DNA from: Desulfobacteraceae bacterium
GTDB lineage: Bacteria; Desulfobacterota; Desulfobacteria; Desulfobacterales; JALSRD01
Direction: 5' to 3'
Assembly: GCA_027061725.1 (NCBI GenBank)
Contig: JAMOVG010000198.1
Coordinates: forward strand, 1-41,160
Length of the DNA: 41,160 bases
Every line of letters begins with the position of its first letter. Positions within the stretch are counted from its first letter, which is position 1. Below the pieces are notes generated by a model. That model worked only from the letters and a program-made list of their open reading frames with translations. It was not told the DNA's origin and searched no databases. The position numbers were made by a program, and so were the translations under genes. Of the stretch, positions 4,261-39,299 are shown in pieces.

Positions 4261-4280
4261 TTATAGTTCACCCTTGATCT

Positions 4281-4344: not shown

Positions 4345-4512
4345 GGAGCGTCATGCATCTGTCCGAATGAATTGCAAAAATTCGTCGCCGGCTCCTCAAA
4401 CAGTTTGAAATTCTCAATGCCGGCCAGATGGATGCCTTTTCCCCCGGATGGACAATGCCGCTGCGCCGAATCGGATCTTGCGCTCCCCTGTCTGGTTGCT
4501 TGTCAAATCAAA

Positions 4513-7848: not shown

Positions 7849-7899
7849 TTGTTGATTCTTTTAGCATGGATAACAAATGGTTGTATGGTAAAAGCGTAC

Positions 7900-7962
7900 G
7901 TTTTCGGTAAATTCCGCCGTTTCGCACAGGATGCGTTTCGGTTCCGTTCCCGTGTCCGTCCC
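7900..7962 (-). repeat. intra-operon repeat, copy B (nuoH/nuoI spacer)
   Basis: This is the second copy of the 62-64-base sequence found at 4281-4344, in the same orientation. It fills about half of the 119-base spacer between the nuoH stop and the nuoI start, ending about 50 bases before nuoI. The match was found by eye. Confidence 0.7.
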
Positions 7963-7967
7963 ATTTT

Positions 7968-11410: not shown

Positions 11411-12672
11411 CCAAACGGACAGGCCTTTCGCTCTATGTGTTCCTGCACTTCGTCTGCAAAGTGCGCCAGCAGGCTCTCCAGGGGGGCCGCCGCGCCGGGG
11501 GCGAAGGCGCAGTAGGCGTTCCACAGGTGGCGGCCCATCTCTTTGAGCACGCCGACGTATTCGGGCTTGCCGCGGCCCTCTTCGATCTCGCGCAGCAGTT
11601 CCCGGATCACGGGCAGCCCCTCGCGGCAGGGGGTGCACCAGCCGCAGGACTCGCGCGCAAAGAATTCCATCAGGTTCAGGGTGACGCCCACCAGGCAGGT
11701 CCTGTGGTCGAAGACCATGATGGCGCCGGTGCCCAGGCGGTTGCCGGCCTGCTTGAGCGACTCGAAATCCATGGGGATGTCGTAGTGTTCGGCCGGCAGA
11801 AAACCGGTGGAGGCCCCGCCCGGCAGGCAGGCCTTGAAGCGCGAGCCCTCGGCCATGCCGCCGGCATGGTTTTCGATGATCTCCGACAGGCGCACCCCCA
11901 TGGGCAGTTCGAAACAGCCCGGCCGCCGGACCCGGCCGCTGATGCCGAAGATCTTGGTGCCGGCCCCGCTCTCGGTGCGGGCCAGGCCCTTGAACCAGTC
12001 GGCGCCGTTTCGCACGATGTGGGGCATGCAGCACAGGGTCTCGACGTTCTGCAGCACCGTGGGCCGGTCCCAGAGCCCCTTTTCGGTGGGGTAGGGCGGC
12101 GGCTGCTGCGGGTTGGGGCGTCTTCCCATGATGGCGTTGAGCTGCGCGGTCACCTCGCCGCAGATGTAGCGTCCCCCGCTGCGGTGCACAATGATGTCGA
12201 AGTCGAAACCGGAGCCCAGGATGTTCTGCCCCAGCAGGCCCTCTTTTTCGGCCAGCGCGATTTCACGCTCCAGGATGCGCGCGGCGCCCTCGTACTCCGG
12301 ACGGATGAAAATGATGCCCTCGTGGGCGTCGACCGCGAAGCCCGCCAGGCAGATGCCCTCGAGCAGCTGGTGGGGATCGGCGTGGATCAGCACGCGGTCC
12401 TTGAAAGTGCCCGGCTCCATCTCGTCGGCGTTGCACACCACGTACCGCGGGTAGGGTGCATCGGCGGCCACCGTCGAGAGCTTGACCCCGGCCGGAAAGG
12501 CGGCGCCCCCGCGCCCCAGCAGCACGGCGTCGGTGAGCACCTGCTGGACCTGCTGGCGCGAACTGTCGGCGAGCACCTTTGCCAGCGCCTCGTAGCCCCC
12601 GCTGTGGCGGTACTCCGCCAGCGTGGCGATGCGGTCGGGGTGACGGTTTTTAAACAGCACCTGGGCCGTCAT
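11407..12672 (-). CDS. nuoF: NADH-quinone oxidoreductase subunit F (FMN/NADH site)
   Basis: NADH-oxidising, FMN-binding subunit of complex I, 421 residues. The glycine-rich flavin loop is GRGGAAFPAG (residues 53-62), followed by CNADEMEPGTFKDR, and the N3 cluster motif ESCGWCTPCREG with a later Cys in AYCAFAPG. The usual acidic pair of the GEET nucleotide-pocket motif reads GEVTAQ here (E173, V174), a noteworthy change. It follows nuoE by one base and overlaps nuoG by ATGA. Confidence 0.95.
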   Translation of the reverse strand: MTAQVLFKNRHPDRIATLAEYRHSGGYEALAKVLADSSRQQVQQVLTDAVLLGRGGAAFPAGVKLSTVAADAPYPRYVVCNADEMEPGTFKDRVLIHADPHQLLEGICLAGFAVDAHEGIIFIRPEYEGAARILEREIALAEKEGLLGQNILGSGFDFDIIVHRSGGRYICGEVTAQLNAIMGRRPNPQQPPPYPTEKGLWDRPTVLQNVETLCCMPHIVRNGADWFKGLARTESGAGTKIFGISGRVRRPGCFELPMGVRLSEIIENHAGGMAEGSRFKACLPGGASTGFLPAEHYDIPMDFESLKQAGNRLGTGAIMVFDHRTCLVGVTLNLMEFFARESCGWCTPCREGLPVIRELLREIEEGRGKPEYVGVLKEMGRHLWNAYCAFAPGAAAPLESLLAHFADEVQEHIERKACPFG

Positions 12673-12673
12673 G

Positions 12674-13153
12674 TCAGTGCGCCTCTCTCAGCTCGTCCAG
12701 CAGTTGGTCGATCGTCTCAGGGGTCAGCGGTCCGTAGACCTTCTTGTTGATCAGCATGGCCGGTGCCCGGTCGCAGTAGCCGATGCAGCACACCGGCAGC
12801 AGGGTGAACAGACCGTCGGCGGTGGTTTCACCGGGCGCGATGGACAGCTTCTGCGACAGGTACTCCTGCAAGCTGCGGCCGCCCTCCAGCCAGCAGATCA
12901 CGCTGTCGCACACGTGGATGACGTATTTGCCCACCGGGCGCCGATAGACGAAGGTATAGAAGGTGGCCACCTCGTCGACTTCCATGGGGGTCATGCCCAG
13001 CAGCCCGGCGGCTTCCTCGACGGCCTCGTCGGTGACAAAACCGTAGTGCGCCTGCAGGGCGAAGAGCACGTCCACCACCAGCTCACGGGGGTGATCGACG
13101 GCCGCGATCCTGTCTTGCAGTTCTTTTTTAAGGTTTTCTGGCAACATATTCAA
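12674..13153 (-). CDS. nuoE: NADH-quinone oxidoreductase subunit E
   Basis: Thioredoxin-fold [2Fe-2S] subunit next to NuoF, 159 residues (E. coli 166). The N1a ligands are recognisable as C82-x4-C87 and C123-x3-C127. The N-terminal helical region (~10-70) with TPMEVDEVATFYTF is family-typical. ATG at 13153 or two codons later are both possible. It is separated from the nuoBCD fusion by 48 bases and followed almost directly by nuoF, so E-F-G form a coupled input module. Confidence 0.95.
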   Translation of the reverse strand: MNMLPENLKKELQDRIAAVDHPRELVVDVLFALQAHYGFVTDEAVEEAAGLLGMTPMEVDEVATFYTFVYRRPVGKYVIHVCDSVICWLEGGRSLQEYLSQKLSIAPGETTADGLFTLLPVCCIGYCDRAPAMLINKKVYGPLTPETIDQLLDELREAH

Positions 13154-13201
13154 ACAATACAGAAAACGACTCTAAAGCGGCACGGGCATTTGCCGGCCAT
13201 C

Positions 13202-15580
13202 TCACCGGTCGATGTCCGGCAGAATGTAGTCCACGGACCCAATGATGGCGATTAGGTCCGAAAGCGACCAGCCGCGCACCATTTTCGGAAGCACCTGCAC
13301 GTTGGCAAAACCCGGCGCCCGGATGCGCATGCGATAGGCGCACGTGCCGCCGTCGCTGACTACGTAGTAGCCCTGTTCGCCGCGCGGAATTTCGCACGAG
13401 GCGTAAGCCTCGCCGGCCGGGATGGTCGGGCCGCGGCTGACATTGACGAAGTGGTGGATCAGGCTCTCGATGTCGCTGAGCATCTCATCGCGCTGGGGCA
13501 GGGCGTAGCGATAGTCGTCGGTGCGGTAGCGCCCTGCCGGCATATTCTCCGCGGCCTGTTCGATGATCCGGAGGCTCTCGCGCATCTCGGCCACGCGCAC
13601 CAGGTAACGGGCGTAGCTGTCGCCGTCCTCCGCCGTCGGAATCTGGAAATCGAAATTTTCGTAGCCCGAGTAGGGAAAAGCCTTTCGCAGATCCCAGGCC
13701 AGGCCGCAGGCCCGCAAGTTGGGGCCCGTGACGCCCCAGTCCACGGCGTCTTCGCGCGAAAGGCGGCCGATCCCCTGGGTGCGGGCCTTGAAGATGGCGT
13801 TTTTCGTGATCAGGGCTTCGTAGTCGTCGAGCTTTTCCGGGAAGATGTCGGTAAAGGCCTTGACCGCTTCGCGCCACCCGTCGGGGAGGTCGGCGGCCAC
13901 GCCCCCGATGCGGAACCACGAGGGGTGCAGCCGGCCCCCGGTGATCATCTCCACGATGTCCATGATCATCTCGCGCTCACGGAAGGTGTAGAAGGTGGGT
14001 GCCATGGCCCCGGTGTCGTGGGCGAAGGTGCCGAAGTAGACCAGGTGATTGCTGATGCGGAACAGCTCGCTGAGCATCACCCGGATGCACTGCGCACGGT
14101 CGGGCACCGTGATGCCGGCCAGCTTTTCCACGGCCAGCACGTAGGGCAGGTTGTTGGCCGCGCCGGCCAGGTAGTCCACCCGGTCGGTGTAGGGGATGAA
14201 CTGGTGCCAGTGCTGGCGTTCGCCGATCTTCTCGGCGCCGCGGTGGTGGTAGCCGATCTCGATCTTCAGATCGGTGATCTCCTCGCCCTGCAAAGCCAGG
14301 ATGAAGCGGATCAGGCCGTGGGTGCTCACGTGGTGGGGGCCCACGTTGAGAATCAGTTCGTGGTCGTCGTCGTTGCCGCCCAGCAGGATGCCGGCGTCCA
14401 GGGGCTGGTGCTCGGCCGCGTCGCGGGTGGTGTAGGGCGGCATCTCGGTGGCGCGTCCGGGGTAGTCCTTGCGCAGCGGGTGGCCCTCCCAGTCGTGGGG
14501 CAGCAGGATGCGCCGCAGGTCGGGGTGGCCGGTGAAATCGACCCCGAACATGTCGAAGATCTCGCGTTCGTACCAGTCGGCCGAGGGCCACAGGTCGCAG
14601 ATGCTCTCCGCCGTCTGGCCGGCGGGCAGCGGCACCTTGAGGCGCAGGCGCATGGCCGGATCGAGGCACAGCAGACTGTAGACCAGGGTGGTGTCGTGGG
14701 CCGGCCTCCGGCGGCGGGCGGTCTCGTCGATGGCCGTCAGGTCCTCCAGACGTGCGAAACGCCGGGGGGCCTCGTGCTTGAGGTAGCGCAGCACCGCCTT
14801 GAGCGAAGCCGGCGAGGCCTCGAAGGTGGCCATGTCCGCGGTGGGGGAGACGGGGCGCACGGCGTCGCCGAAGCGCCCGGCCAGCTCACGCGTGAGGTTT
14901 TTTTCGGCCGTGCCCGGTTCGATGCGGGCGGCCGCCGGCGTCCACATGAGCCGGTCGCGGCTTTCGAAGAACCCGGGGGGCACGGCGGCGCTGCCCCGGA
15001 TGGGGATGCCCTGCATGCCCGGCCCGCGGGGATCCCGCGACTTGCTGCGGCCGTCCACCAGTACCGGCTTTTCGGTGCCCTGGCTGCCGCCGCCCAGGTG
15101 GAAGATGCGCCCGCCGGGGCGCTCGGCGGCGATTTTCTCCTGCAGCATGGTCAGGCCCTTTAGCACCGCCTCGGGACGCGGCGGGCAGCCCGGGATGTAG
15201 ACGTCCACCGGCAGGATCTGGTTGACGCCCTGCACCACGCTGTAGACGTCGTACATGCCGCCGCTGTTGGCGCACGATCCCATGGAGATCACCCAGCGCG
15301 GTTCGGCCATCTGCTCGTAGAGGCGCAGCACCACCGGGGCAATTTTCTTGAAGACCGTGCCGGCGATAATCAGCAGGTCAGCCTGGCGCGGCGAGGGCCG
15401 CAGCACCTCGGCGCCGAAGCGGGCGATATCGTAGCGCGACGTGAAGGTGGTGGCTTCTTCCACGAAACAGCACGACAGCCCGAAGAACATGGGCCACAGG
15501 CTGCGGGAGCGTGCCCAGTTGATCAGCGGGTCGACGGCCCGTGTGAAGGCGGCTATTTTCTTCGGCTGGTCGGCCCCCAC
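13202..15580 (-). CDS. nuoBCD: NADH-quinone oxidoreductase B/C/D fusion
   Basis: One 792-residue frame joins three complex I subunits. Residues ~1-165 are NuoB, with N2 cluster ligands C37/C38/C103/C132 ([25 protein letters not shown]). A ~80-residue polar linker follows. Residues ~248-378 are NuoC, ending with [10 protein letters not shown] and [19 protein letters not shown]. Residues ~405-792 are NuoD, with GPHHVSTHG and HHRGAEK. I chose GTG at 15580 because GGGAGG lies 6 bases upstream and the longer ORF-track N-terminus is nuoA read in another frame. It overlaps nuoA by 28 bases. Fusion of C and D is common; B-C-D in one chain is less so. Confidence 0.95.
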
Positions 15581-15966
15581 TCGAGCCCTCCCTTTTTCCA
15601 GATGTAGACCAGCCCGTAGAGCAGGATGAGGATGAAAAAAGTCATCTGCAGCCAGCCGGCCCAGCCCAGTTCGCGGCTGGCCACGGCCCAGGAGAAGATA
15701 AAGGCGCCCTCCACGTCGAAAAGCAGGAAGAAAATGGCCACCATGTAGAACGGCACCGGGTTGTGCAGGCGGGCCGCACCGGTGGGGATGACGCCGCTCT
15801 CGTAGGCACGCTGTTTTTCCACACCGGGCCGCTTTTCGCCCAGCCACGCCGACAGGAAGATCATGGCGCCGATGACCACCAGCACCACCAGGGCGTAGAG
15901 TACCAGGCTGAAGATGCCCGGGTGCCAGGGGGACAGAACGCTGGATACGGCGGCGGCAGATTGCAA
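15553..15966 (-). CDS. nuoA: NADH-quinone oxidoreductase subunit A
   Basis: First gene of the nuo operon; a three-helix membrane subunit that packs against NuoH and NuoD. It contains [30 protein letters not shown] (conserved DVE) and the [17 protein letters not shown] end. Two starts are open. GTG at 16029 gives 158 residues but has no Shine-Dalgarno and would lie at the predicted transcription start. TTG at 15966 has GGAG 8 bases upstream and gives 137 residues, the normal family size. I prefer the TTG. Confidence 0.9.
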
Positions 15967-19898: not shown

Positions 19899-20660
19899 TC
19901 AGAAACGCAGCGACAGGCAACTCAGGCCACCGTCTATTTTGCGAAACTCGGATACGTCCAGGGCAATGGTTTCGAAACCGGCCTGCTCGATGCATTTGCG
20001 GGTCCCGGGAAAACCCTCGGCCACCAGCACTCGCCCGTTGATCCACAGGCAGTTGGCGGCGTAACATTCCGCGTCGTCTACGGCCAGGATGTGAAACCGC
20101 CGGAAGGCCGGGTGATCGACGAATTCTCCGGCGGCCACCAGGGTGTCGTTTTCCAGGTAGGCGACGCCGCTCTTGAGGTGCAGAAAATCATGCAGGGCCA
20201 CGGTGGAGGCGCCCAGTCCGCGCTTTTCGAGGATAGCGGTCATCTGCGCCGCACCTTCACGATTGGTGCGCTGCGACAGGCCGATGAAGAAGTGGCTCCC
20301 GACCATCATGATGTCGCCGGCGTCCACTGTACCGGGTGCGGTGATGTGCGCAATGTCGTCGAAGAATGCCGCCAGGGCCGCTTCCACCGTGGCGGTTTCG
20401 CCGCGGCGGCTGGGGGCGCCGGGGCGGGTGATGACGGCACAACCCGGAACCAGCAGGGCGGTGTCTTCGATGAAGGTCGAGTCGGGGTAGGCCTCGTCGG
20501 CTTCCAGCACGGTGACCGCCAGGCCGCAGTCGCGCAGCGCCTGCACGTAGGCGGCGTGCTGCTCCAGGGCGCGGGCAAAATCCGGTTTGCCCAGGCCGGC
20601 TGTGGTCAGGCCGTGGATCATGTTTCTGCAGGGGGTTTTGACCAGTGCTTTGGTGAACAT
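19899..20660 (-). CDS. ddaH: dimethylarginine dimethylaminohydrolase
   Basis: A 253-residue member of the guanidino-group-modifying enzymes. DDAH hydrolyses N-omega-methylated arginines to citrulline and methylamines. Recognised blocks are PDSTFIEDTAL (~60-69), GTVDAGDIM (~110-118), FLHLKSGVAYL with the catalytic His (H161), and DGGLSCLSLRF with the nucleophilic Cys (C248). Close relatives such as arginine deiminase are larger, so DDAH is the better call. An AAGGAAG ribosome-binding site precedes the ATG. It follows hisHF by 8 bases, probably as an operon. Confidence 0.88.
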   Translation of the reverse strand: MFTKALVKTPCRNMIHGLTTAGLGKPDFARALEQHAAYVQALRDCGLAVTVLEADEAYPDSTFIEDTALLVPGCAVITRPGAPSRRGETATVEAALAAFFDDIAHITAPGTVDAGDIMMVGSHFFIGLSQRTNREGAAQMTAILEKRGLGASTVALHDFLHLKSGVAYLENDTLVAAGEFVDHPAFRRFHILAVDDAECYAANCLWINGRVLVAEGFPGTRKCIEQAGFETIALDVSEFRKIDGGLSCLSLRF

Positions 20661-20668
20661 GGCTTCCT

Positions 20669-22240
20669 TTAAGTCCTGATTTCGACTTTGCCTTTAAGAT
20701 ACTGTTTTACAGAACTAATTGGTACCTCACGACGATGGAAGATGCCGGCCGCCAGGGCCGCTTCGGCCGCGGTGCGGGTGAAGACTTCCAGGAAGTGCTC
20801 CTCGCAGCCGGCGCCGCTGGAGGCGATCACCGGGATGGAGACGGCGCCCTTGACGGCGTTGATCAGTTCGATGTCGAAGCCGGCGTTGGTGCCGTCGCGG
20901 TCGATGCAGTTGAGCAGGATCTCCCCGGCACCCAGCTGCTCGCAGACGCGCGCCAGGGTGACGGCGTCCAGGTCGCGGTCCTCGCGGCCGCCGCGGACGG
21001 TGCACTGGTACCAGCAATGGCGTTCTCCGTTTGGCCCCGGGGTGGCGGTTTCGATGGTGGGGTGGGGCACCGCATCGGCCGAGGCCACGTACACCCGGTG
21101 CGGATCGATGGAGATCACCACGGCCTGGTTGCCGTAGCGGCGCGAGATGGTCTCGATGGCGCTGTCACCGGAGGGATGCCCGCGTTTTATCACCTCTTCG
21201 GCGATGCGCACGGCGTCGCTGCCGATGGAGATCTTATCGGCGCCCGAACGGAAATAGGCGTCCGCCACTTCCAGCGCCGTCCAGCTGCGGCCGTTGCGGT
21301 CGGTGAAATCCCGGATGCCGCCCCCGATGGTCAGCGGTACAAAGACGTTCTCCGAGGTGCGCCGAAGGACCTCCAGCATGGGCATGTCCTGCAGCGGAAA
21401 GTCGCGGAAACCGGTGATGTTGAGAAATGTGATCTCGTCGGCGCCCTCCTGGTAATAGCGTCGGGCCAGTTCGACGGGCTTTCCCAGGTTGCGCACCTCG
21501 CCGTCTTCGCGCACGTCGTACTGGTCGCCCTTGGTGACCACCAGGTCGCCGCGGTCGTTGGTGCGCACGTCCAGGCAGGCGATGATGCGCCGGGCCAGCC
21601 GCGTGGGGCCGGCGGCCGGGGCGGGCCGGACAGGGGCGCTGTCGGCACGCAGGAAATTTTCCAGGATGCGCAGCCCGGCAGGGCCGCTTTTTTCCGGGTG
21701 AAACTGGGTGGCCACCAGGTTGCCGCGCTGGACGGCGCTGACGAAGCGGTAGCCGTAATCGGTGGTGGTCAGTACCGCCGCCTCGTCATCGCACACCACG
21801 TGGTAGGAGTGCACGAAGTAGAACTTCTCGTCGCCGCGCAGGCCGTCGAAGACGCGCGACGGCTGCTGGACGCGCAGCCCGTTCCAGCCCATGTGGGGCA
21901 CGGCCCGGTCGATGTCGAAGCGCCGCACGCTGCCCTCGATGGCGCCCAGCCCTGGCACGCCGGGGGCCTCCTGGCTGCCGGCAAACAGCGCCTGCAGCCC
22001 CAGGCAGATGCCCAGGAAGGGACGGTCGGCCGCCAGGTAGCGTTTCAGGGGGGCCACGAAGCCGCGGTCGCGGAGCTCCTGCATCATGCTGCCGAAGGCA
22101 CCCACCCCGGGAAACACCAGTTTCTCGGCGGCCAGGATGTCGTCGGGCGTCCGGACGACGCGGACCCGTTCTCCCAGCTTCTCCAGGGCGTTTATCACGC
22201 TGCGCACATTGCCGGCGCCATAGTCGAGCAGGGTGATCAT
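20669..22240 (-). CDS. hisHF: imidazole glycerol phosphate synthase HisH-HisF fusion
   Basis: Bifunctional enzyme of histidine biosynthesis: the glutaminase half supplies ammonia and the cyclase half makes imidazole glycerol phosphate and AICAR. It has 523 residues. Residues 1-~203 are HisH with nucleophile C79 (LGICLGLQ) and FHPEKS. Residues ~218-523 are HisF with CLDVRTND and CIDRDGTNAGFD catalytic aspartates. The segment with KPVELARRYYQEGADEITF, NITGFRDFPLQD and the insertion FTDRNGRSWTALEVA is eukaryote HIS7-like. Start: ATG 22240 with AAGGGGA upstream; the ORF-track start at 22282 lacks this. No other his gene is nearby. Confidence 0.95.
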   Translation of the reverse strand: MITLLDYGAGNVRSVINALEKLGERVRVVRTPDDILAAEKLVFPGVGAFGSMMQELRDRGFVAPLKRYLAADRPFLGICLGLQALFAGSQEAPGVPGLGAIEGSVRRFDIDRAVPHMGWNGLRVQQPSRVFDGLRGDEKFYFVHSYHVVCDDEAAVLTTTDYGYRFVSAVQRGNLVATQFHPEKSGPAGLRILENFLRADSAPVRPAPAAGPTRLARRIIACLDVRTNDRGDLVVTKGDQYDVREDGEVRNLGKPVELARRYYQEGADEITFLNITGFRDFPLQDMPMLEVLRRTSENVFVPLTIGGGIRDFTDRNGRSWTALEVADAYFRSGADKISIGSDAVRIAEEVIKRGHPSGDSAIETISRRYGNQAVVISIDPHRVYVASADAVPHPTIETATPGPNGERHCWYQCTVRGGREDRDLDAVTLARVCEQLGAGEILLNCIDRDGTNAGFDIELINAVKGAVSIPVIASSGAGCEEHFLEVFTRTAAEAALAAGIFHRREVPISSVKQYLKGKVEIRT

Positions 22241-22410
22241 GCGTGTTTTCCCCTTAGCGATAATGCGTTGCCATACTCCCAAAACCGAACATGATTTCTA
22301 CCACAGAGATCGCGGAGATCACAGCGATTTTTTCAGCGTTCTGCCCTCTGGATATATGGCGGTTCGGCGCCGGAACGCTTGTCGTGGTCTCGAGCGGTCC
22401 CACCTTTTGC

Positions 22411-22446: not shown

Positions 22447-22523
22447 CTGGACCCGTTGGCAGGTTTGAACCCAAGGCCCTGGAGGGGGCCGTCTTGTCTA
22501 TTTTGCGCAAAGGAGTGTGCTCC

Positions 22524-22874
22524 ATGATCATTGCAAATGAAAAAGAAGCCCCGGCGCAGGTGCTGGAGAGCCCGGAGCTCAGGGATGTGGCCATGAAGGT
22601 GTTGGTGTCGCCCGAAGAGGGCTGGCAGGATCACGTCATGCGGCTGTTCGAACTGGGCGAGGGCGGCTACACGCCCCGGCACACCCACGACTGGCCGCAC
22701 ATCAACTACATCGTGGAGGGAAAGGGCGTGCTGCATGTCAACGGGCAGGACACCCCCATCGAGAGCGGCTCCTATGCCTTCGTGCCCGCCGGCAGCACCC
22801 ACCAGTTTCGAAATGCCGGCAGCGGCAAGTTCCGCTTTATCTGCATCGTGCCCAGGGAGGGGCACCAGTTCTAG
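22524..22874 (+). CDS. small single-domain cupin protein
   Basis: A 116-residue cupin barrel. Motif 1 is GGYTPRHTHDWPHINYIVEGKG and motif 2 is GSYAFVPAGSTHQFRN, so metal ligands H53, H55 and H93 are visible, while the usual motif-1 glutamate position appears to be H59. Small cupins of this kind bind a metal and act as isomerases, dioxygenases or sensors; no substrate can be inferred. The ATG at 22524 has AAAGGAG upstream, whereas the ORF-track start at 22233 lies in the leader. It is a single-gene plus-strand unit between divergent hisHF and the convergent parvulin gene. Confidence 0.85.
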   Translation: MIIANEKEAPAQVLESPELRDVAMKVLVSPEEGWQDHVMRLFELGEGGYTPRHTHDWPHINYIVEGKGVLHVNGQDTPIESGSYAFVPAGSTHQFRNAGSGKFRFICIVPREGHQF

Positions 22875-24733: not shown

Positions 24734-26152
24734 TCAGCCGACGGCATGGCTTTTCCGGTAGGCCTCGATGCGCTCGTCGATTTCCGCGATGCGGGCCTGC
24801 TGCCTCTCCCAGTATTCCTGGTCCGCCTGGGCGTTGAGTTCCTCGATGCTTTTGCCCTGCTGCTCGACCCAGGTGTAGTATTTCAGGTTGTGCCAGCGGG
24901 CGCGGTTGAGGCGCGTACCCTCGCTGATCCAGTCCAGCTTCTGCTTGTGGAAGATACTTACCGTGCGCACGCAGGCCTCGGTCTCGTCCATGGGGCCCAG
25001 GTCCTCGGTAAGCTGGGCCATGACCGAGTGGTAGCGGTCGATGGCATCGGTGCAGATGGTGGCCACCAGGTCGTTTTTTCCCAGTCCGTAGAACTTGGCG
25101 GTCTTGATGGCACCCAGCACGTTGCAGACCCCCGAGATGCCGAAAATCTGCGACAGGCGCTGCACGGTTTCCCCGTCGATGCCGTATCGTTCGCTGAGCA
25201 CGCGCCAGCCGGCCTCCTCGGTGAGCAGCTGCAGCCCCATCTTGGACTCCATGTCGTCGATGCACATGACGGCGTCCATGTTGGTGACGTTGTGGATCCA
25301 GGTGACGTGCTTGTCGCCGATGCCCTGGATGTCGTGGGCGCCGTAACCGTTGGCGAACAGCGTGGGGCACTGGATGGGCTCCAGGCCGACGATGCGGTGG
25401 CTGCCCGGCCACTGCTGCTTCAGGCGATCTCCGGCTGCGATGGTGCCGCCGGAACCCATGGCCGAAACATAAGCCGCCACGCGGCCGTCGCCGATGCCGC
25501 GCGCCTTCAGCTGCCCGGCCAGTTCGATGAGGGTGTTGCCGGTCACGAAGTAATGGAAACGATAGTTGCCGAAGGCCTCGAACTGGTTCATGACCCGCAC
25601 CCGCTCGGGGTCTGCGGCCACCAGTTCGTGGCACTTGTCGTAGATCTCCTTGACGTTGCTCTCGCATCCCGGGGTCAGTTCCAAGCGTGCACCGTAGCGC
25701 CGCACGATGTCGAAGCGCTCCTGGCTCATCTCCTCGGGCAGGATGACCACCGAGTCGAACTGCATGCGGCAGCCCACCCAGGCACCGCCGATGCCATAGT
25801 TGCCCGTCGACGGCCAGACGATGGTGTGCCGCGCCGGGTCCACCTCGCCGCCGATGGCCTTTTCCACCAGCACGGCGTAAGTGGCGCCCACCTTGTGGCT
25901 GCCGGTGGGAAAGTCCTTGCCGTAGAGCACCACGATGGGCGCTTCCACGCCGGTCAGCGCTTCGGGCAGCACCTCGTGGTAGATGCGGTTGTCAGCGTCT
26001 TTCCAGGAGATGTTGAATAGGTTGATGGGGTCCAGGGGATCCTTCCCGCGGGCCTCCAGGGCCTGTTGGCGGATGCGGGGGTCGATTTTGTCCGGGTCCA
26101 GCATTTCCGCGAAAGTCGGTCCGGTGATCAGGGTCGTCGAATCAGAAGTCAT
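24734..26152 (-). CDS. PLP-dependent enzyme, cysteine-synthase-like fold type II
   Basis: A 472-residue fold-type II (tryptophan-synthase-beta family) enzyme. The Schiff-base lysine is K87 in TGSHKVGAT, the substrate loop is PSTGNYGIGG, and a glycine-rich phosphate loop appears as SAMGSGGTIAAG. It is longer than typical cysteine synthases (~310 residues), with an extra C-terminal ~100 residues of charged helix. The substrate is unknown to me; cysteine synthase, a beta-eliminating lyase or a related beta-replacement enzyme are possible. The start at 26152 has AAAGGAA upstream, and the ORF-track start at 26284 is too long. It follows a second PLP enzyme by 14 bases. Confidence 0.88.
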   Translation of the reverse strand: MTSDSTTLITGPTFAEMLDPDKIDPRIRQQALEARGKDPLDPINLFNISWKDADNRIYHEVLPEALTGVEAPIVVLYGKDFPTGSHKVGATYAVLVEKAIGGEVDPARHTIVWPSTGNYGIGGAWVGCRMQFDSVVILPEEMSQERFDIVRRYGARLELTPGCESNVKEIYDKCHELVAADPERVRVMNQFEAFGNYRFHYFVTGNTLIELAGQLKARGIGDGRVAAYVSAMGSGGTIAAGDRLKQQWPGSHRIVGLEPIQCPTLFANGYGAHDIQGIGDKHVTWIHNVTNMDAVMCIDDMESKMGLQLLTEEAGWRVLSERYGIDGETVQRLSQIFGISGVCNVLGAIKTAKFYGLGKNDLVATICTDAIDRYHSVMAQLTEDLGPMDETEACVRTVSIFHKQKLDWISEGTRLNRARWHNLKYYTWVEQQGKSIEELNAQADQEYWERQQARIAEIDERIEAYRKSHAVG

Positions 26153-26166
26153 GGCGGTTCCTTTCT

Positions 26167-27657
26167 CTATGCAGCGCTGCGGTCCAGCCCGGTGAAGAAC
26201 AGGACCACGTTTTCCACAGGGGCGATGTCGCCGGCGGCCGTCAGCTGCAGCAGCCCGGCTAGGCCGGATGTGCCCGTGGCGCACGGCGTCATGTCCGTCT
26301 CGGCACGGGCCAGGCCGTGGGCGCGGGCGATCTGCGTTTCGTCGATGATTTCTGCGCGGCCGCCGGTCCGCAGTATGGCGGCGGCCAGCGCGAGCCAGTC
26401 ATAGGTCTCGTCATCCAGGATGCCGTGGGCCAGGCTGCGGGGCGGCGCCCCGTCCCAGGCCCACATGAACGCGTCGCGGCGGGTCACCGCTTCGGCCAGC
26501 ACCTGCCCGACGGCCGGGGTATCGAAATGCCGCCGGGCGAAATCGGCGACCCGTCGGATTCGGGGCGCCCCGGAACGGCTGAAATTTTTCAGGCGTGCGA
26601 GCTGCGGCCCGGGGTCGCTGTCGTGCTGCCAGGGCGGCAGGTCCCAGGCCAGACCGTTGCGCACGGCGATGCGTCCCAGCAGCAGCAGGTAGGCGCGCAC
26701 GAAGGGGAAGCCGCCCTCGGGCTGGCACGCGTAGATCCTCGGCAGGCGTTGCGCCAGGCCCAGGGCCAGCGCCGTCTGCCAGGCCTGGACGATGGCCCTG
26801 CCCAGGGCGCCGCCGCCCACCTGGATGACGGTTGCCGTGACATCCAGGCCGGTTTCGGCCACCTGCATGAGGGCCTCCCAGCCCAGGGTCTCGCCGCCCT
26901 CGATATTGGACCAGTTGTCGTTGCCCGAGCAGGAAAAGGGCAGCCAGCCCTTTTGCTCCACCGCCCGGCGGAAGGCCAGGTAGCAGGGGTCTCCGGCCGC
27001 CTCACGGTCGCGGCCGTACTTGTGCACCCGGGTCCGGTGTCGGTGCAGCAGTTTTTCGACCAGCGGGTCCACCTCCTGGGGCACGAAAGCGTGCAGGTCG
27101 AACCCGCCGGCGCGCGCCACGGCGGCCGCGCCCAGGGCCGCGTTGCCGCAGCTGTAGATGGCCAGCGTCGGCCGGGGGGCCTGTGGACGTCTGCGGCGTA
27201 TGGCCTCGAGGTACAGCAGGCTGCCCATCAGATGGCGGGCCTTGTGCGAGCCGCTCACATTGACGGTTTCGTTCTTGATCAACAGTCGTCCGGGCCGTGC
27301 CAGCGCCCGTGCCAGCCGTTGGCCCTCGACCAGCGGGGTGACCCGGAAGCCGGTGCCCTCCATCTCCTGCAGACGGCCGTCGAGCTCGTCCAGCACCGCT
27401 TCGTATGCCGGCCGGCCGAGCAGGGCGCGGCTGGCGAAGCCGGCGCTGAAGAGGCGGAAAGGGTCCCTGGAACCCGCCTGCCAGGATTGCCGCAGGTGCG
27501 CTGCCGCCGCCCTTGCAGAGGGGCCGAACGCGGTCAGCCGACGGAGGGTGTGCTCGGCTCCCGGACGGCGGTGGGGGCAGGCCAACAGGCCGCCGGACGG
27601 GTCGTAGCCGCGGCCGCAGGCCGGACAGTACAGGGTGATGTGCGGCGCTCTTTTCAT
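26167..27657 (-). CDS. threonine-synthase-like PLP enzyme with zinc-ribbon-like N-terminus
   Basis: A 496-residue fold-type II PLP enzyme. Residues ~11-28 (CPACGRGYDPSGGLLACPH) resemble the N-terminal zinc ribbon of some threonine synthases. The catalytic lysine is K139 in SGSHKARHLM, the substrate loop is YSCGNAALGAAAV, and VGGGALGRA is the phosphate-binding glycine loop. True threonine synthases act on phosphohomoserine; I cannot confirm that specificity here, and no thr/hom genes are near. It is followed after 14 bases by a second PLP enzyme and is divergent from a TRAP transporter, suggesting shared substrate chemistry. Confidence 0.85.
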   Translation of the reverse strand: MKRAPHITLYCPACGRGYDPSGGLLACPHRRPGAEHTLRRLTAFGPSARAAAAHLRQSWQAGSRDPFRLFSAGFASRALLGRPAYEAVLDELDGRLQEMEGTGFRVTPLVEGQRLARALARPGRLLIKNETVNVSGSHKARHLMGSLLYLEAIRRRRPQAPRPTLAIYSCGNAALGAAAVARAGGFDLHAFVPQEVDPLVEKLLHRHRTRVHKYGRDREAAGDPCYLAFRRAVEQKGWLPFSCSGNDNWSNIEGGETLGWEALMQVAETGLDVTATVIQVGGGALGRAIVQAWQTALALGLAQRLPRIYACQPEGGFPFVRAYLLLLGRIAVRNGLAWDLPPWQHDSDPGPQLARLKNFSRSGAPRIRRVADFARRHFDTPAVGQVLAEAVTRRDAFMWAWDGAPPRSLAHGILDDETYDWLALAAAILRTGGRAEIIDETQIARAHGLARAETDMTPCATGTSGLAGLLQLTAAGDIAPVENVVLFFTGLDRSAA

Positions 27658-27739
27658 GGGGGCGATCTTACCTTCATTGGTTGTGGTTTGCCAAGTGTTC
27701 TTTTTCCCCTTTGGGGCCCGGTTTCCGAATCATCTTTAC

Positions 27740-27768
27740 TTGACAAAGCCGATGCGATAGGCGATGTT
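27740..27768 (+). promoter_or_regulatory. possible promoter of the TRAP transporter operon
   Basis: TTGACA (27740-27745), 17 bases, GATGTT. The -10 is weak. A small hairpin (GCCGG...CCGGC, about 27793-27815) lies in the leader. The 226-base divergent region to the PLP gene shows no other clear site. Confidence 0.35.
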
Positions 27769-27883
27769 TAGACATCTACCCTTCGGTAACCCATTTGCCG
27801 GTGTGCGGTACCCGCCGGCATTCCCCCGCAAGAATCGCAGTGCTTTCACCAGGCGTTTTTCTGCGGTATCGAATGAGGGATCC

Positions 27884-28396
27884 TTGGTTAACGCTGAACT
27901 TGCCCGCAAGATGGATGCATTCGGACGGCGCCTGAACTGGCTGGTGGAGCGCCTGTGTGCCCTGCTGATGGCCGTCATGGTGATGGTAATCTGGTTTGGT
28001 GTGTTGGAGCGCTATTTCCTGGGCCTGGGTGTCACCTGGACCGAGGAGTTCTCACGCTACGTCATGATCTGGGTGGCGCTGCTGGCCGTGTCCTGCGGCG
28101 CCTACCGCCGTGAGCACATCGGGCTGGACTTCATCCTGCAGCGCCTCTCGCCCGACAACCGCAAGCGTCTGCGCCTGGCCCTGGACCTGATGGGGCTGTG
28201 CTTTTTCCTGTTCATGTTCTATTACGGTCTGGGCATGGCGGCCGGCGGGGCCAGCCAGTACGCCACCATCTTCGGCATGACCATGCTGGTGCCCTTCGCC
28301 TCGGTGCCGGTGTCGGCGGCCCTGACCAGCATCCAGATCGTGGTCACCATGATCCGCGATTTCAGCGCCGAACCCCTTTCCCCGGAGGCCCAGTGA
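27884..28396 (+). CDS. dctQ: TRAP transporter small membrane subunit (DctQ family)
   Basis: A 170-residue, four-helix small permease of a tripartite ATP-independent periplasmic transporter. It has the family-typical GVTWTEEFSRYVMIWVALLA and YRREHIGLDF segments. Start choice: TTG at 27884 has GAGG 5 bases upstream, while ATG at 27911 has no clear Shine-Dalgarno; the ORF-track ATG at 27764 is probably upstream of the transcript's coding part. The large subunit begins one base after its stop, so the pair is co-translated. Confidence 0.88.
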   Translation: MVNAELARKMDAFGRRLNWLVERLCALLMAVMVMVIWFGVLERYFLGLGVTWTEEFSRYVMIWVALLAVSCGAYRREHIGLDFILQRLSPDNRKRLRLALDLMGLCFFLFMFYYGLGMAAGGASQYATIFGMTMLVPFASVPVSAALTSIQIVVTMIRDFSAEPLSPEAQ

Positions 28397-28397
28397 C

Positions 28398-29681
28398 ATG
28401 ACCATCGTGGCCGTCACCTTTTTCGGTCTGATCCTCATCGGCCTGCCCATCGGTTTCGTGCTGGGCATCGCCGGCGTCATCGGCCTGCTACAGATCGGCG
28501 GGCAGAACTTCCTCACCATGGCGCCCAAGCGCTTTTTCGAGGGCCTGGACCTGTTCACCTTCATGGCCATGCCGTTCTTTATCCTGGCCGGCGAGATCAT
28601 GAACCGCTCGGGCATCACCGAGCGTCTGGCGGCCTTTGCCGATGCCCTGGTGGGGTACCTGCGCGGCGGCCTGGCGCACTCCAACATGGTGGCCTCGGTG
28701 ATGTTCGCCGGCATGACCGGCGCGGCGGTTTCCGACACGGCGGCCTTCGGCAACACCCTGGTGCCCGCCATGGTCAAGCAGGGCTATACGCGGCCCTTTT
28801 CCTGCGCCGTGACGGTGGCCGGGTCCATCATCGGACCCACCATCCCGCCGTCCAACCTGATGGTCATTTACGGGTCGCTCATGGGGGTCTCCATCGCCGG
28901 CCTGTTCGCCGCCGGCATCCTGCCCGGCCTGCTCATCTGCCTGCTGTGCATGGCGGTCATCGCCGCCCTGGGACGGCGGCTGAACCTGCCCAAGAGCCAA
29001 AGGGGGCCCAGCCTGCGGGTGATCGTGGCCGCCTTCCGCTCCAGTTTCCTGGCGCTGCTGATGCCGGGAATCATCCTGGGCGGCATCCTGCTGGGCATCG
29101 TGACGCCCACCGAGGCGGCCGCCATCGCCGTTTTCTACGCCCTTTTCATCGGGGTGGTGGTCTACCGCGCCATCACCTTCGCCGACATCGTGGACATGCT
29201 TATCCGCACCGCGCTGATCACGGGGGTGGTCTTCCTGATCATCGCCTCGGCCTCCATCCTGAGCTGGTGGATGACTTTCATGCAGATCCCCCAGACCATC
29301 GCGGCTTTTTTTCTGTCGCTCTCGAGCAACCCCAAGGTCATCATCGGCCTGATCCTGGCGCTGCTGCTGGCCATCGGCATGTTCATGGACATCAACGCCG
29401 CCCTGATCATCCTGGCCCCGGTGCTGGGTCCCCTGACGGCGGCCGTGGGCATGAACCCGGTGCACGCCGGCATCATGATCGTGCTGGCGCTTAACATCTC
29501 GCTGATGACCCCGCCGGTGGGCGCCTGCCTGTTCGTGCTCTCCTCGGTGACCGGCGAGCGCATCGAACGCATCAGCGCCGCCCTGGTTCCCTTCCTGGTG
29601 GTGGAGGTGCTGGTGCTGGTGATGGTGGCCTACTGGAGCGACATGACCATGTGGCTGCCGCGGCTGCTGCTGGGCAAGTGA
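28398..29681 (+). CDS. dctM: TRAP transporter large permease subunit (DctM family)
   Basis: A 427-residue integral membrane protein with about 12-13 helices that forms the ion-coupled transport channel of the TRAP system. Family hallmarks include FFILAGEIMNRSGIT, FAGMTGAAVSDTAAFGN, TIPPSNLMVIYG, and MFMDINAALIILAPVLGP followed by MTPPVGACLFV. Transport is driven by a sodium or proton gradient in characterised relatives. It sits between the small permease and the binding protein in the standard Q-M-P order. Confidence 0.96.
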   Translation: MTIVAVTFFGLILIGLPIGFVLGIAGVIGLLQIGGQNFLTMAPKRFFEGLDLFTFMAMPFFILAGEIMNRSGITERLAAFADALVGYLRGGLAHSNMVASVMFAGMTGAAVSDTAAFGNTLVPAMVKQGYTRPFSCAVTVAGSIIGPTIPPSNLMVIYGSLMGVSIAGLFAAGILPGLLICLLCMAVIAALGRRLNLPKSQRGPSLRVIVAAFRSSFLALLMPGIILGGILLGIVTPTEAAAIAVFYALFIGVVVYRAITFADIVDMLIRTALITGVVFLIIASASILSWWMTFMQIPQTIAAFFLSLSSNPKVIIGLILALLLAIGMFMDINAALIILAPVLGPLTAAVGMNPVHAGIMIVLALNISLMTPPVGACLFVLSSVTGERIERISAALVPFLVVEVLVLVMVAYWSDMTMWLPRLLLGK

Positions 29682-29747
29682 TGACTGGATTTGGAATCGG
29701 TATTGTTTGGCGTCTAACTTACATCAATGGGAAAAAGGAGGAAACGC

Positions 29748-30794
29748 ATGAAGCACTTCACCCGTATTTTCGTCATTTTCGTCGTGGCGCTGGGGCTGGC
29801 CCTGGCCGCTCCCATGGGGGCCCAGGCCGCCAAGGTCATCAAGCTGCACCACCTCAACAAGGACGACCCCTTCGACAACCCCACCGGCGCCATGGCCACG
29901 GTTTTCAAGAGCCTGGTGGAAGCCGGCACCAACGGCAGCGTCCAGGTGCAGACCTTTCCCAGCGGCCAGCTGGGCAAGGACGCCGAGGTGGTCCAGCAGG
30001 TCAAGGCCGGCGTGATCCAGTCCGGCATCCACTCGGTGGGCGGCTTCGCCTCGGTCTACCCCATGATGGGGGTCATCGACATCCCCTTCGCCTTCCCCAA
30101 CATCAGCACCACTTACGCGGTCTTTGACGGGCCCTTCGGCAAAAAGTTTGCCGGCGATATCGAGAAGAAGACCGGCCTCAAGGTGCTGGGCTTCGGCGAC
30201 TCCGGGGGCTTTTTCCAGTTCACCAACTCCAAACGGCCCATCAAGACCCCGGCCGACATGAAGGGCCTCAAGATCCGCACCATGGGCTTAGACACCCACA
30301 AGACCATCATCAAAGCCCTGGGCGGCCAGCCTGCCGCCATCGCCTGGAGCGAGGTCTACACGGCGCTTCAGACCGGCGTGGCCGACGGGCAGATGAACCC
30401 CATTCCCATCATCGCCTTCGCCAAGTTCAACGAGGTCCAGAAGTACCTGACCCTCAGCGGGCACCTCTTCGCGCCCTACGTGTGGGTCATGAACCAGAAG
30501 TTCTGGGACAGCCTGACGCCGTCCGAGCAGTACGTCGTGAAGTACGCCGCGCGTTCCGCCATCGTGGCCGGGCGGGGCATGGGCCGCATCATCGAGGCCT
30601 CCGACCGCGGTCTGCCGGCGCTGGCCAAGGACATGCAGGTCAACGCCCTGTCGCCCGAGGAGAAGGCCAAGTTCCGCGATGTGGCCATGCCGGCCGTCAA
30701 GGAGCTGATTGTCAAGAAGTTCGGCGCCGAGGGCCAGGAGATGATGCAGGCCTTCCTGGACGCCATCGCCCAGGCCGAAAAGGCCGAAAAGTAG
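29748..30794 (+). CDS. dctP: TRAP transporter substrate-binding protein (DctP family)
   Basis: A 348-residue periplasmic solute receptor. A signal peptide (MKHFTRIFVIFVVALGLALA, cleavage near AQA-AK) precedes the DctP fold. FTNSKRPIKTPADMKGLKIRTMG carries the conserved arginine that in the family pairs with a substrate carboxylate. AIAWSEVYTALQTGVADGQ is the typical hinge/pocket block. A carboxylated solute is therefore likely, but its identity is open. AAGGAGG lies 7 bases before the ATG at 29748. A strong terminator follows. Confidence 0.95.
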   Translation: MKHFTRIFVIFVVALGLALAAPMGAQAAKVIKLHHLNKDDPFDNPTGAMATVFKSLVEAGTNGSVQVQTFPSGQLGKDAEVVQQVKAGVIQSGIHSVGGFASVYPMMGVIDIPFAFPNISTTYAVFDGPFGKKFAGDIEKKTGLKVLGFGDSGGFFQFTNSKRPIKTPADMKGLKIRTMGLDTHKTIIKALGGQPAAIAWSEVYTALQTGVADGQMNPIPIIAFAKFNEVQKYLTLSGHLFAPYVWVMNQKFWDSLTPSEQYVVKYAARSAIVAGRGMGRIIEASDRGLPALAKDMQVNALSPEEKAKFRDVAMPAVKELIVKKFGAEGQEMMQAFLDAIAQAEKAEK

Positions 30795-37322: not shown

Positions 37323-37562
37323 TCAGCCCCCGAAGATGCGCTGAAAGACGTGAACACGCTCGCCGCCCTGCAGGCGGTGGGAGGATTTAACCAGTTTGCC
37401 GTCCACGGAGACCATGCCCAGGCGACTTGCAGGAATGCCCAACTGCTCGATGAGACGGCCGACATCGGCACCCTCCGGCAGCGCTACTACGAGACCGCTG
37501 CGGGCGTCGTAGCCGGGCACATGCCTGGGAAGGGTGCCGAACAGTTTTACGGAGACGTTCAT
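37323..37562 (-). CDS. MoaD/ThiS-like ubiquitin-fold protein
   Basis: A 79-residue beta-grasp protein ending in FGG, the di-glycine tail that in MoaD/ThiS proteins is adenylated and thiocarboxylated to deliver sulfur. FGTLPRHVPG at the start and GGERVHVFQRIFGG at the end fit the family. It lies 9 bases downstream of an AOR gene, the usual place for a dedicated sulfur carrier for the tungsten-pterin cofactor. Its E1-like activating partner is not in the window. Confidence 0.85.
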   Translation of the reverse strand: MNVSVKLFGTLPRHVPGYDARSGLVVALPEGADVGRLIEQLGIPASRLGMVSVDGKLVKSSHRLQGGERVHVFQRIFGG

Positions 37563-37571
37563 GGCGGCCCG

Positions 37572-39299
37572 CTAGAAGTCGAAGGTCTTGTCCATCTCTT
37601 CGTCGCTGATGATGACGACCTTGTTGTGGGGCGGCAGGGGCTCTTCGTAGAACATGGGCGCCAGCCGATCGTCCTGGCTGGTGAAGCCGGCGCGCCGGTT
37701 GAAGTCGCGCTCGGCCTTGAGAACGCGGGTCCCCAGGTCGGTCCAGTCCGCCTCGGTAAAGGCTTTGCCGGACTTGGCGGCGATCATTTTGCACACGTTT
37801 TCCAGGCCGCCCGGGGCGGCCAGGCCGCTCTGGGCAAAGTCGCAAATGCCCACGCTGTCCACGGCCGCCATATGGATCTGGGTGTTTCGGGAGGCCTCCA
37901 CCTGTCCCTCGGCGGAAAAGCGGTCCAGGGTCCCGCCGAAATCCTCCAGGCTCTGGTCCACCACCCACCCGGCGGTGTGATCGGCGCCCATGGGGGAGGT
38001 GGCGTAGGTGACCGCCATACCCTGGATGGCCCGGGGGTCGTAGGCCGCCATGCTCTGGCCCTTGACCACCGGCACGCGCGGGTGGCCGAAGTGTTTCCCC
38101 ACCGCCACCGGCCCGTTTCCGATGACCTTCCCGAAATCGGTTCCACCGGCGACTTCTTCCAGCATCTCGATGGCGGCCCGCCCGTCACCGAACGGTTTGT
38201 ACCCGGCGTCCATAGCCACGGCTACGGCCACGCCGGTGCTGATGGTGTCCAGGCCGATGTCGTCGCACAAAAAGTCCAGCCGGGCGATGGTGTCCAGGTC
38301 GTCGTTTCCGATCATGGCCCCCATGGACCAAATGGTCTCGTATTCGAGGGACGAAGTCACGTATTTGCCTTCGCGGTCCACGTACTCGTTGGAACAGTTG
38401 ATGATGCACTGGGCGCAGCCCTTGTGGGTGGTTTTGCCGCCCCGTTCGCGGATGATCTGCGCCATGGTTTCGCCGCTGATGTGGTCGGCCCCCTCGAACT
38501 GTCCTTCCCTGGCGTTGCGCGTGGGCAGGGCGCCGGCGGCGTTGATGGGTGCCACCAGCACGGCGCTGCCGAGTTCGGGAAGTACTTCTCCGCTGAACTC
38601 GTCGGCGCGCACGGCCCTGGCATACTCCCTGGCGGCGGTCTTGAAAGCCTCGGGGTCGGCCAGGGGCGCCGGTGCGTTGCCCTTTTTGTGCACCACCAGG
38701 GCCTTAAGCCCCTTGGACCCCATGACGGCGCCCAGCCCCCCCCGGCCGGCCGCCCGGCAGGGCCGGCCGTCGAAATCCGTCGTCTGGATGGAGGCTGCTG
38801 AAAGCTGCATCTCGCCGGCCGGGCCGATGCCGGTGACGCTGTAGTCCGGACCGAGCTGGTCCCGAATCTGTTCCACCATCTCGTACGTGCGGCTACCCCA
38901 AATGCGGCCGGCATCCGCCAGGCTCGCTTCGCCGTTTTCGTCGATTTTTAGAACAAAGGTTTTGCCGTCCTCCGGCCGCCCCTCGACCACGACCGCGGTG
39001 ATGCCGAGCCGCGCCAGGTCGCGAGCCACGGTGCCGCCTACGTTGCTCTCCTTGATACCGCCGGTCAGGGGACTCTTGGCGCCGACGGACAGGCGGCTGG
39101 TGTTGACCAGCGGCGTGGCGCTGAAGTAGCCCGGCGCGAAGATCAGTTTGTTGTCCGGCCCCAGGGGATCGCAGTCGGCGGGCACCTCGGCGTTGATTAA
39201 CAGGGACGTCAGGGCCCGTCCGCCCAGATTCGTGAATTCTTCGGGGACATCCCGGGTGGTTACGGTGGCGTTGGTCATATCGACGCGAATGAGTTTCAT
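37572..39299 (-). CDS. aor: aldehyde:ferredoxin oxidoreductase family (tungsten) enzyme
   Basis: A 575-residue AOR-family oxidoreductase, expected to bind a tungsten bis-pyranopterin and one [4Fe-4S] cluster. The N-terminal domain carries GGRALTSLL and FAPGYFSATPLVNTSR, then GRGGLGAVMGSKGLKALVV. Cluster ligands are the three cysteines of CAQCIINC plus a distal Cys in DSVGICDF. Members oxidise aldehydes to acids with ferredoxin; some, such as BamB, act on aromatic CoA thioesters, so substrate is open. AAGGAGGACCC precedes the ATG. The upstream gene's alternative-frame stop overlaps this ribosome-binding site. Confidence 0.93.
   Translation of the reverse strand: MKLIRVDMTNATVTTRDVPEEFTNLGGRALTSLLINAEVPADCDPLGPDNKLIFAPGYFSATPLVNTSRLSVGAKSPLTGGIKESNVGGTVARDLARLGITAVVVEGRPEDGKTFVLKIDENGEASLADAGRIWGSRTYEMVEQIRDQLGPDYSVTGIGPAGEMQLSAASIQTTDFDGRPCRAAGRGGLGAVMGSKGLKALVVHKKGNAPAPLADPEAFKTAAREYARAVRADEFSGEVLPELGSAVLVAPINAAGALPTRNAREGQFEGADHISGETMAQIIRERGGKTTHKGCAQCIINCSNEYVDREGKYVTSSLEYETIWSMGAMIGNDDLDTIARLDFLCDDIGLDTISTGVAVAVAMDAGYKPFGDGRAAIEMLEEVAGGTDFGKVIGNGPVAVGKHFGHPRVPVVKGQSMAAYDPRAIQGMAVTYATSPMGADHTAGWVVDQSLEDFGGTLDRFSAEGQVEASRNTQIHMAAVDSVGICDFAQSGLAAPGGLENVCKMIAAKSGKAFTEADWTDLGTRVLKAERDFNRRAGFTSQDDRLAPMFYEEPLPPHNKVVIISDEEMDKTFDF

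What the first reader, a model, noticed from the sequence alone, without database searches (positions are those of the whole stretch)
24734..29681. Two tandem fold-type II PLP enzymes divergent from a TRAP transporter
Two different PLP enzymes (both with a GSHK lysine motif, one with a zinc-ribbon-like N-terminus) are 14 bases apart and share a divergent region with a dctQMP operon. Neither enzyme matches a standard length for cysteine or threonine synthase. Together they could import and process an amino-acid-like or carboxylated solute by beta- or gamma-elimination/replacement. This is a candidate undescribed catabolic cassette.
Basis: inference. Interest (0 to 1): 0.5.

Follow-up and report, generated by a model that had tools for sequence, protein, structure and literature searches.

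The report
TRAP-linked PLP pair replacing YgeX lyase
Two uncharacterised vitamin-B6 enzymes beside an uptake system belong to families that, across many bacterial phyla, sit with the genes of the newly solved anaerobic uric-acid breakdown pathway and usually stand where its known last enzyme (YgeX) is missing, so they probably finish the breakdown of an imported or internally made ureido/diamino acid.

Summary
In detail: PLP1 (472 aa) and PLP2 (496 aa, Cys-rich N-terminus) are 14 bases apart and divergent from a dctQMP TRAP operon. The cassette is not of unknown context. PLP1 relatives (at least 590 stretches) sit with the reductive urate pathway genes XdhD, YgfK, SsnA, HyuA, YgeW/UacY, YgeY and carbamate kinase. 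In 192 genomes of the class, PLP1 family and YgeY share 18 genomes (2.3 expected). The second enzyme (c1, or PLP2 in this lineage) occurs in 18 of the 20 PLP1-family genomes; no c1 was found among the other 172. The known lyase YgeX is absent from 18 of those 20 genomes and from 42 of 49 in other phyla. TRAP appears where upstream purine genes are missing from the locus; its binding protein is 75-78% identical in clusters whose PLP enzyme is only about 45% identical. So the window most likely encodes a TRAP-fed lower half of the urate pathway (ureido acid to 2,3-diaminopropionate to ammonia and a C3 product), with a PLP pair in place of YgeX. Caveat: this genome also has a YgeX-type urate cluster, so here the cassette is an extra, parallel set. 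Substrate, product and division of labour are inferred, not shown.

The parts
24734..26152 (-). PLP1: fold-type II PLP enzyme, 472 aa, cysteine-synthase-like core with N- and C-terminal extensions; Schiff-base lysine K87
   Evidence: Pfam PALP; A1/A4 alignments with K87, STGN 115-118, GSGGT 233-237 conserved; AlphaFold model pLDDT 92.8, best PDB match OASS CysK2 4lmb
26167..27657 (-). PLP2: threonine-synthase-like fold-type II PLP enzyme, 496 aa, zinc-ribbon-like N-terminus; Schiff-base lysine K139
   Evidence: Pfam PALP; 50-78 bits for PLP2 proteins to the c1 profile, hhalign 98.3% to c1; model pLDDT 83.7, best PDB match threonine synthase 2zsj
27658..27763 (.). divergent intergenic/promoter region between PLP2 and dctQ (up to about 27883 if dctQ starts at TTG 27884)
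   Evidence: sequence; one weak sigma-70-like site on the - strand, no more than shuffles give
27764..28396 (+). DctQ, TRAP small permease (likely true start TTG 27884)
   Evidence: Pfam PF04290 E 5.7e-27
28398..29681 (+). DctM, TRAP large permease
   Evidence: Pfam PF06808 E 1.8e-109; TIGR00786 392 bits
29727..30794 (+).
   Evidence: Pfam PF03480 E 4e-79; 75-87% identical to DctP of five other PLP-pair/YgeY/YgeW clusters

Best explanation
The window encodes an import-and-cleavage module for a ureido/diamino-propionate. DctPQM imports a carboxylate such as 2,3-diureidopropionate or albizziin (2-amino-3-ureidopropionate). YgeW (phosphorolysis to carbamoyl phosphate, cashed in by carbamate kinase) and YgeY remove the ureido groups; in this genome these genes are on other contigs, in close relatives they are in the same cluster. 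The resulting 2,3-diaminopropionate is processed by the PLP1/PLP2 pair in place of the single lyase YgeX. PLP1, the more widespread partner, most likely does the alpha,beta-elimination through an aminoacrylate to pyruvate and ammonia. PLP2 (or its counterpart c1) is a helper, for example for the other stereoisomer or a second elimination/replacement step. Shown: gene content, linkage, co-occurrence, fold class and YgeX absence in most relatives. Inferred: substrate, product, import ligand and division of labour.
For: Class sample of 192 genomes: PLP1 family in 20, YgeY in 22, overlap 18, expected 2.3; genus-level overlap 13 of 14 and 16 genera out of 99. Second PLP enzyme: c1 in 15 genomes, all within the PLP1-family set; PLP2 in G000, G003 and G020; so 18 of 20 have one or the other, and c1 was found in none of the other 172. 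YgeX over cut-off in only 2 of the 20 and in 7 of 49 PLP1-family genomes from other phyla; it is in none of the 96 neighbourhoods. YgeY present in 18 of 23 PLP1-family genomes tested elsewhere, even when not adjacent. Gene order: G003 YgeW-YgeY-PLP1-PLP2 <> TRAP; G075 YgeW-c0-c1-TRAP-carbamate kinase-YgeY-GntR; G098 YgeW-c0-c1-TRAP-YgeY-GntR with no SsnA match in the genome. DctP is 75-78% identical in c0/c1 clusters whose PLP enzyme is about 45% identical to PLP1: same transporter, exchanged PLP pair. The pathway to diaminopropionate is biochemically established (PMC12507026).
Against: This genome (G000) has a YgeX-type urate cluster on contigs C354/C266, and Pyramidobacter (L153/G218) and a Desulfobulbaceae MAG (G237) also carry both YgeX and the pair. 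Across the class, PLP1 family and YgeX are not significantly exclusive (2 observed, 3.0 expected). Hence the pair may do something related but not identical. The window itself has no YgeY or YgeW. No residue-level evidence for diaminopropionate binding was obtained: the Asp of the diaminopropionate ammonia-lyase TDGNH loop (recalled from memory) is Thr in PLP1 and Cys in PLP2. 20 of 70 large PLP1-family neighbourhoods hold none of the searched pathway genes. Most genomes are MAGs.
Confidence: 0.5

Rival explanations
1. Stereochemical or product specialisation: the pair acts on the same diaminopropionate-type intermediate but is not a plain substitute for YgeX (racemase plus lyase, or beta-replacement giving an amino acid such as cysteine instead of pyruvate), which is why some genomes keep both.
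For: Dual systems in G000, G237 and G218; PLP1 is closest to beta-replacement enzymes (OASS, CBS, O-ureidoserine synthase), PLP2 to threonine synthase with serine racemase also matched.
Against: Most PLP1-family genomes have no YgeX at all, so in them the pair must be enough if diaminopropionate is degraded; product unknown.
Confidence: 0.25
2. The TRAP cassette handles a different imported ureido- or acyl-amino acid, and YgeW/YgeY/PLP homologues were recruited to it; the diaminopropionate link holds only for the purine-type clusters.
For: PLP1 clade is only about 45% identical to the c0 clade and its YgeY partners are divergent (G003 497 and G020 459 bits versus 660 or more for most complete ones); PLP2 differs strongly from c1 (19-24% identity); no upstream purine genes at the TRAP loci.
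Against: The same DctP (75-78%) accompanies both PLP variants; PLP1-clade enzymes of Chloroflexota sit in clusters with YgeY, YgeW, carbamate kinase and SsnA-like genes.
Confidence: 0.15
3. Ordinary sulfur or amino-acid biosynthesis enzymes (cysteine, cysteate or threonine synthase paralogues) that only happen to lie next to a TRAP operon.
For: Superfamily matches to cysK (122.9 bits) and threonine synthase (68.1 bits).
Against: Far below the curated cut-offs (351 and 303 bits); ThrC-type sequences are encoded elsewhere in G000, G003 and G020; conserved linkage with YgeY, YgeW and TRAP.
Confidence: 0.07

Closest known systems
Reductive uric acid degradation pathway (XdhD-YgfK-SsnA-HyuA-YgeW/UacY-YgeY-YgeX), PMC12507026
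   Same: PLP1-family loci carry YgeW or UacY, YgeY, carbamate kinase and, in many loci, XdhD, YgfK, SsnA or HyuA
   Different: YgeX is absent from the locus and usually from the genome; two non-orthologous PLP enzymes instead; the TRAP-type loci lack the upstream purine genes. Li et al. scored YgeX by Pfam PF00291 alone, which PLP1 and PLP2 also match, so their survey could not tell them apart.
Diaminopropionate ammonia-lyase YgeX (TIGR01747/TIGR03528)
   Same: fold-type II PLP enzyme; same place in the gene cluster
   Different: PLP1 18.9 bits against a cut-off of 274, PLP2 not listed
O-acetylserine sulfhydrylase / cystathionine beta-synthase / SbnA (PLP1)
   Same: catalytic core fold; TM-score 0.86 over 4lmb
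   Different: about 160 extra residues in N- and C-terminal extensions and an insertion; 123 bits against a cut-off of 351
Threonine synthase / cysteate synthase (PLP2, c1)
   Same: N-terminal Cys cluster and threonine-synthase fold; c1 just passes NF006050 (307.5 against 303)
   Different: PLP2 fails it (68 bits), has a long insertion and a GGG in place of the GDG loop
DctPQM TRAP transporters
   Same: all three subunits complete
   Different: ligand unknown

Membership tests
YgeX diaminopropionate ammonia-lyase | score above TIGR01747 cut-off (274 bits) | tested here: not met
   PLP1 18.9 bits; PLP2 below threshold
YgeX diaminopropionate ammonia-lyase | diaminopropionate converted to pyruvate + 2 NH3 | not testable with these tools
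   needs an assay
Cysteine synthase (CysK/CysM) | score above TIGR01139 cut-off (350.95) | tested here: not met
   PLP1 122.9 bits
Threonine synthase | score above NF006050 cut-off (303) | tested here: not met
   PLP2 68.1 bits; the related c1 of L041 scores 307.5 and meets it
Cysteate synthase | score above TIGR03844 or NF053679 cut-off | tested here: not met
   PLP1 29.5 against 600 for NF053679; PLP2 not listed
Fold-type II PLP enzymes (Pfam PALP) | PF00291 above gathering score, Schiff-base Lys and Asn loop | tested here: met
   73.4 and 110.8 bits against 35; K87/N118 and K139/N172 conserved
TRAP (DctPQM) transporter | complete P, Q and M subunits above Pfam gathering scores | tested here: met
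Reductive urate pathway, lower half | YgeY linked to the pair | tested here: met
   at genome level in 18 of 20 class genomes and 18 of 23 others; adjacent in G003 and G020; in G000 on other contigs
Reductive urate pathway, lower half | YgeW or UacY in the cluster | tested here: met
   G003 YgeW 594.4 bits against 500; UacY-like in L036, L166, L153, L103; not in the window itself
Reductive urate pathway, lower half | substrate and product identity | not testable with these tools
   inferred from neighbours

The most novel reading that the evidence does not exclude
A widespread two-enzyme PLP system (PLP1/c0 plus c1/PLP2), hidden under the generic Pfam PF00291 label, carries out the final C3 step of anaerobic purine breakdown by a route that differs from YgeX. 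A TRAP-fed form lets bacteria without the purine-ring-opening genes live on ureido-amino acids made by others or by plants.
Probability: 0.35. Interest if true: 0.65.

Novelty: new variant of a known kind. Interest (0 to 1): 0.5.

Why it matters
The reductive urate pathway was solved only in 2025 and its last steps are still debated (ureido order, stereochemistry; PMC12990295). A PLP pair that is present where YgeX is missing in Chloroflexota, Spirochaetota, Ignavibacteriota, Acidobacteriota, Clostridia and Desulfobacterota would correct current annotation ('cysteine synthase-like', 'threonine synthase') and widen the set of predicted urate degraders. The TRAP-linked form predicts a testable cross-feeding trade in ureido acids in anaerobic communities.

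Tried and rejected
(1) Cysteate/sulfonate metabolism: cysteate synthase models far below cut-off. (2) 'The pair is found with TRAP in every relative': rejected, most c0 loci carry purine genes or an ABC transporter instead. (3) 'Pair and YgeX strictly exclusive': rejected at genome level (G000, G075, G218, G237 and others have both); exclusive only at the locus level. (4) TAG inside the G003 PLP1 homologue as pyrrolysine: rejected, it is the normal stop at the end of the 471-aa ORF. (5) A conserved operator in the divergent region: the alignment of three relatives shows nothing clear and promoter matches are at chance level. (6) A YgfK call in L027 is most likely a glutamate-synthase-like protein (201 bits, judged by eye from its sequence), not a urate gene. 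(7) Literature searches for the pair, for a TRAP-YgeY link and for albizziin catabolism found no prior description. (8) One search for the ligand of PDB 4ngu gave nothing.

Full report
OBSERVATION. The window is one whole contig (G000:C198, 41160 bases). PLP1 (24734-26152, minus, 472 aa) and PLP2 (26167-27657, minus, 496 aa) are separated by 14 bases and diverge from dctQ-dctM-dctP (27764-30794, plus). Pfam gives PALP (PF00291) for both and DctQ/DctM/DctP for the transporter. No curated NCBIfam enzyme model is reached: PLP1 scores 123 bits for cysteine synthase A (cut-off 351), PLP2 68 bits for threonine synthase (cut-off 303), and diaminopropionate ammonia-lyase models give PLP1 at most 20 bits. 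The two proteins show no BLASTP similarity to each other. AlphaFold models are good (pLDDT 92.8 and 83.7). PLP1 matches cysteine synthases/CBS over its core (best 4lmb, TM 0.86 of the target), PLP2 matches threonine synthases (best 2zsj). The Schiff-base lysines (K87, K139) and Asn loops are conserved.

CLOSE RELATIVES. Orthologues of PLP1 at 85% and 74% are in G003 (same genus) and G020 (same order), each beside a PLP2 orthologue (56% and 49%). G003 has the order YgeW - YgeY - PLP1 - PLP2 <> dctQMP; G020 has the TRAP genes, PLP2, PLP1, YgeY and YgeW. The G003 proteins pass the curated cut-offs for YgeW (594 bits, TIGR03316) and YgeY (498 bits, TIGR03526). A Desulfobacteraceae MAG (L079) has TRAP, PLP2 and PLP1 on one contig and YgeY on another. 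YgeW and YgeY are the ureido-removing enzymes of the reductive uric-acid pathway, in which YgeX (a PLP lyase) makes pyruvate from 2,3-diaminopropionate (PMC12507026). The two studies of that pathway disagree on the order of ureido removal (PMC12990295).

WIDER FAMILY. Two clades are fully supported (100/100): a PLP1 clade (54-74%; Chloroflexota, Thermotogota, some Bacillota and Myxococcota, and the Desulfobacterota lineage of the window, which is nested among Chloroflexota) and a c0 clade (about 45%; many phyla). Their neighbourhoods repeatedly contain XdhD, YgfK, SsnA, HyuA, YgeY, YgeW or UacY, carbamate kinase, a purine-type BMP/ABC transporter and a second, Cys-rich threonine-synthase-like PLP enzyme, here called c1. 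c1 is an alternative partner: the same superfamily as PLP2 (hhalign 98.3%) but 19-24% identical. YgeX was the best hit for no ORF in the 96 neighbourhoods. At the tally thresholds used, 67 of 96 neighbourhoods had at least one pathway gene or the partner PLP enzyme, and 20 of 70 large ones had none.

CO-OCCURRENCE. In one fixed sample of 192 genomes of the class: PLP1 family 20, YgeY 22, overlap 18 (expected 2.3, Fisher p 1.5e-19 without correction for relatedness; at genus level 13 shared of 14 and 16 among 99, p 1.2e-12). c1 is in 15 genomes, all of them PLP1-family genomes; the three PLP2 genomes are PLP1-family genomes without c1. YgeX over cut-off is in 29 genomes but in only 2 of the 20 (G000, G075), which at genome level is not significantly fewer than chance gives. 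In other phyla YgeX is found in 7 of 49 PLP1-family genomes and YgeY in 18 of 23. Several genomes have YgeY and PLP1/c0 but neither c1 nor YgeX (G165, G193, G194, G204, G212; PLP2 itself was not searched in the last four), whereas c1 never occurs without c0 in the class sample. This asymmetry suggests that PLP1/c0 is the essential lyase and c1/PLP2 the helper, but these are draft genomes.

TRAP-TYPE LOCI. TRAP genes accompany the pair in the window, G003, G020, L079, G031, G075, G098, G187 and Pyramidobacter; TRAP lies with c0 alone in G165, and with c1/UacY/YgeY (c0 on another contig) in G091. None of these loci has XdhD or SsnA; the one YgfK call (L027, 201 bits) looks like a glutamate-synthase-like protein. 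G098 has no SsnA match anywhere. The window's DctP is 87% identical to that of G003 and 75-78% to those of G020, G031, G075 and G098, although the PLP1 of the window is only about 43-44% identical to the c0 of the last three. The same transporter is therefore used with either PLP pair, which argues that both pairs serve the same imported compound.

THIS GENOME. G000 also has YgeX-YgeY on contig C354 and YgeW, XdhD, SsnA and YgfK on C266, i.e. an E. coli-like urate cluster, so the window's cassette is a second set without its own YgeW/YgeY. G237 and G218 likewise have YgeX as well as the pair. This is the main reason for caution: the pair may differ from YgeX in stereochemistry or product.

MECHANISM. 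Import of a ureido acid by DctPQM, removal of ureido groups by YgeW (carbamoyl phosphate to ATP through carbamate kinase) and YgeY, then beta-elimination on diaminopropionate by PLP1 with PLP2 as partner. The order, ligand and product are inferred from neighbours and from the published pathway. No biochemical evidence exists here.

KNOWN OR NEW. Li et al. mapped YgeX by Pfam PF00291 alone, a label that PLP1 and PLP2 also receive, so the substitution was invisible in that survey. No paper found in the library describes the pair or a TRAP link. Verdict: a new variant of a known pathway type, moderately interesting, with a cheap decisive assay.

Noticed in passing
20669-22282 (-): A single 537-aa ORF that reads as a HisH-HisF fusion (glutamine amidotransferase plus cyclase, as in eukaryotic HIS7), followed by a dimethylargininase-like gene at 19899-20660 (NF045658 348 bits, cut-off 450). 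The HisHF reading is by eye.
   Followed up: no
22518-22874 (+): A small cupin (Cupin_2) upstream of and divergent from HisHF; function unknown.
   Followed up: no
37323-39299 (-): Tungsten/aldehyde:ferredoxin oxidoreductase-like gene followed by a MoaD/ThiS-like small protein (by eye).
   Followed up: no
1364-15847 (-): Long NADH:quinone oxidoreductase (nuo) operon (by eye).
   Followed up: no
L084 and L097 (Thermotogae MAGs): PLP1-clade gene next to an XdhD-like gene and an adenine-deaminase-like gene (in L084 also an SsnA-like amidohydrolase), without YgeY or YgeW in the locus: a possible shorter purine cluster.
   Followed up: partly
L038 and L164 (G165): A complete YgeY-carbamate kinase-YgeW-XdhD-SsnA-YgfK cluster (G165:C94) in a genome with c0 but without YgeX or c1: a natural test of whether c0 alone is enough.
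   Followed up: partly
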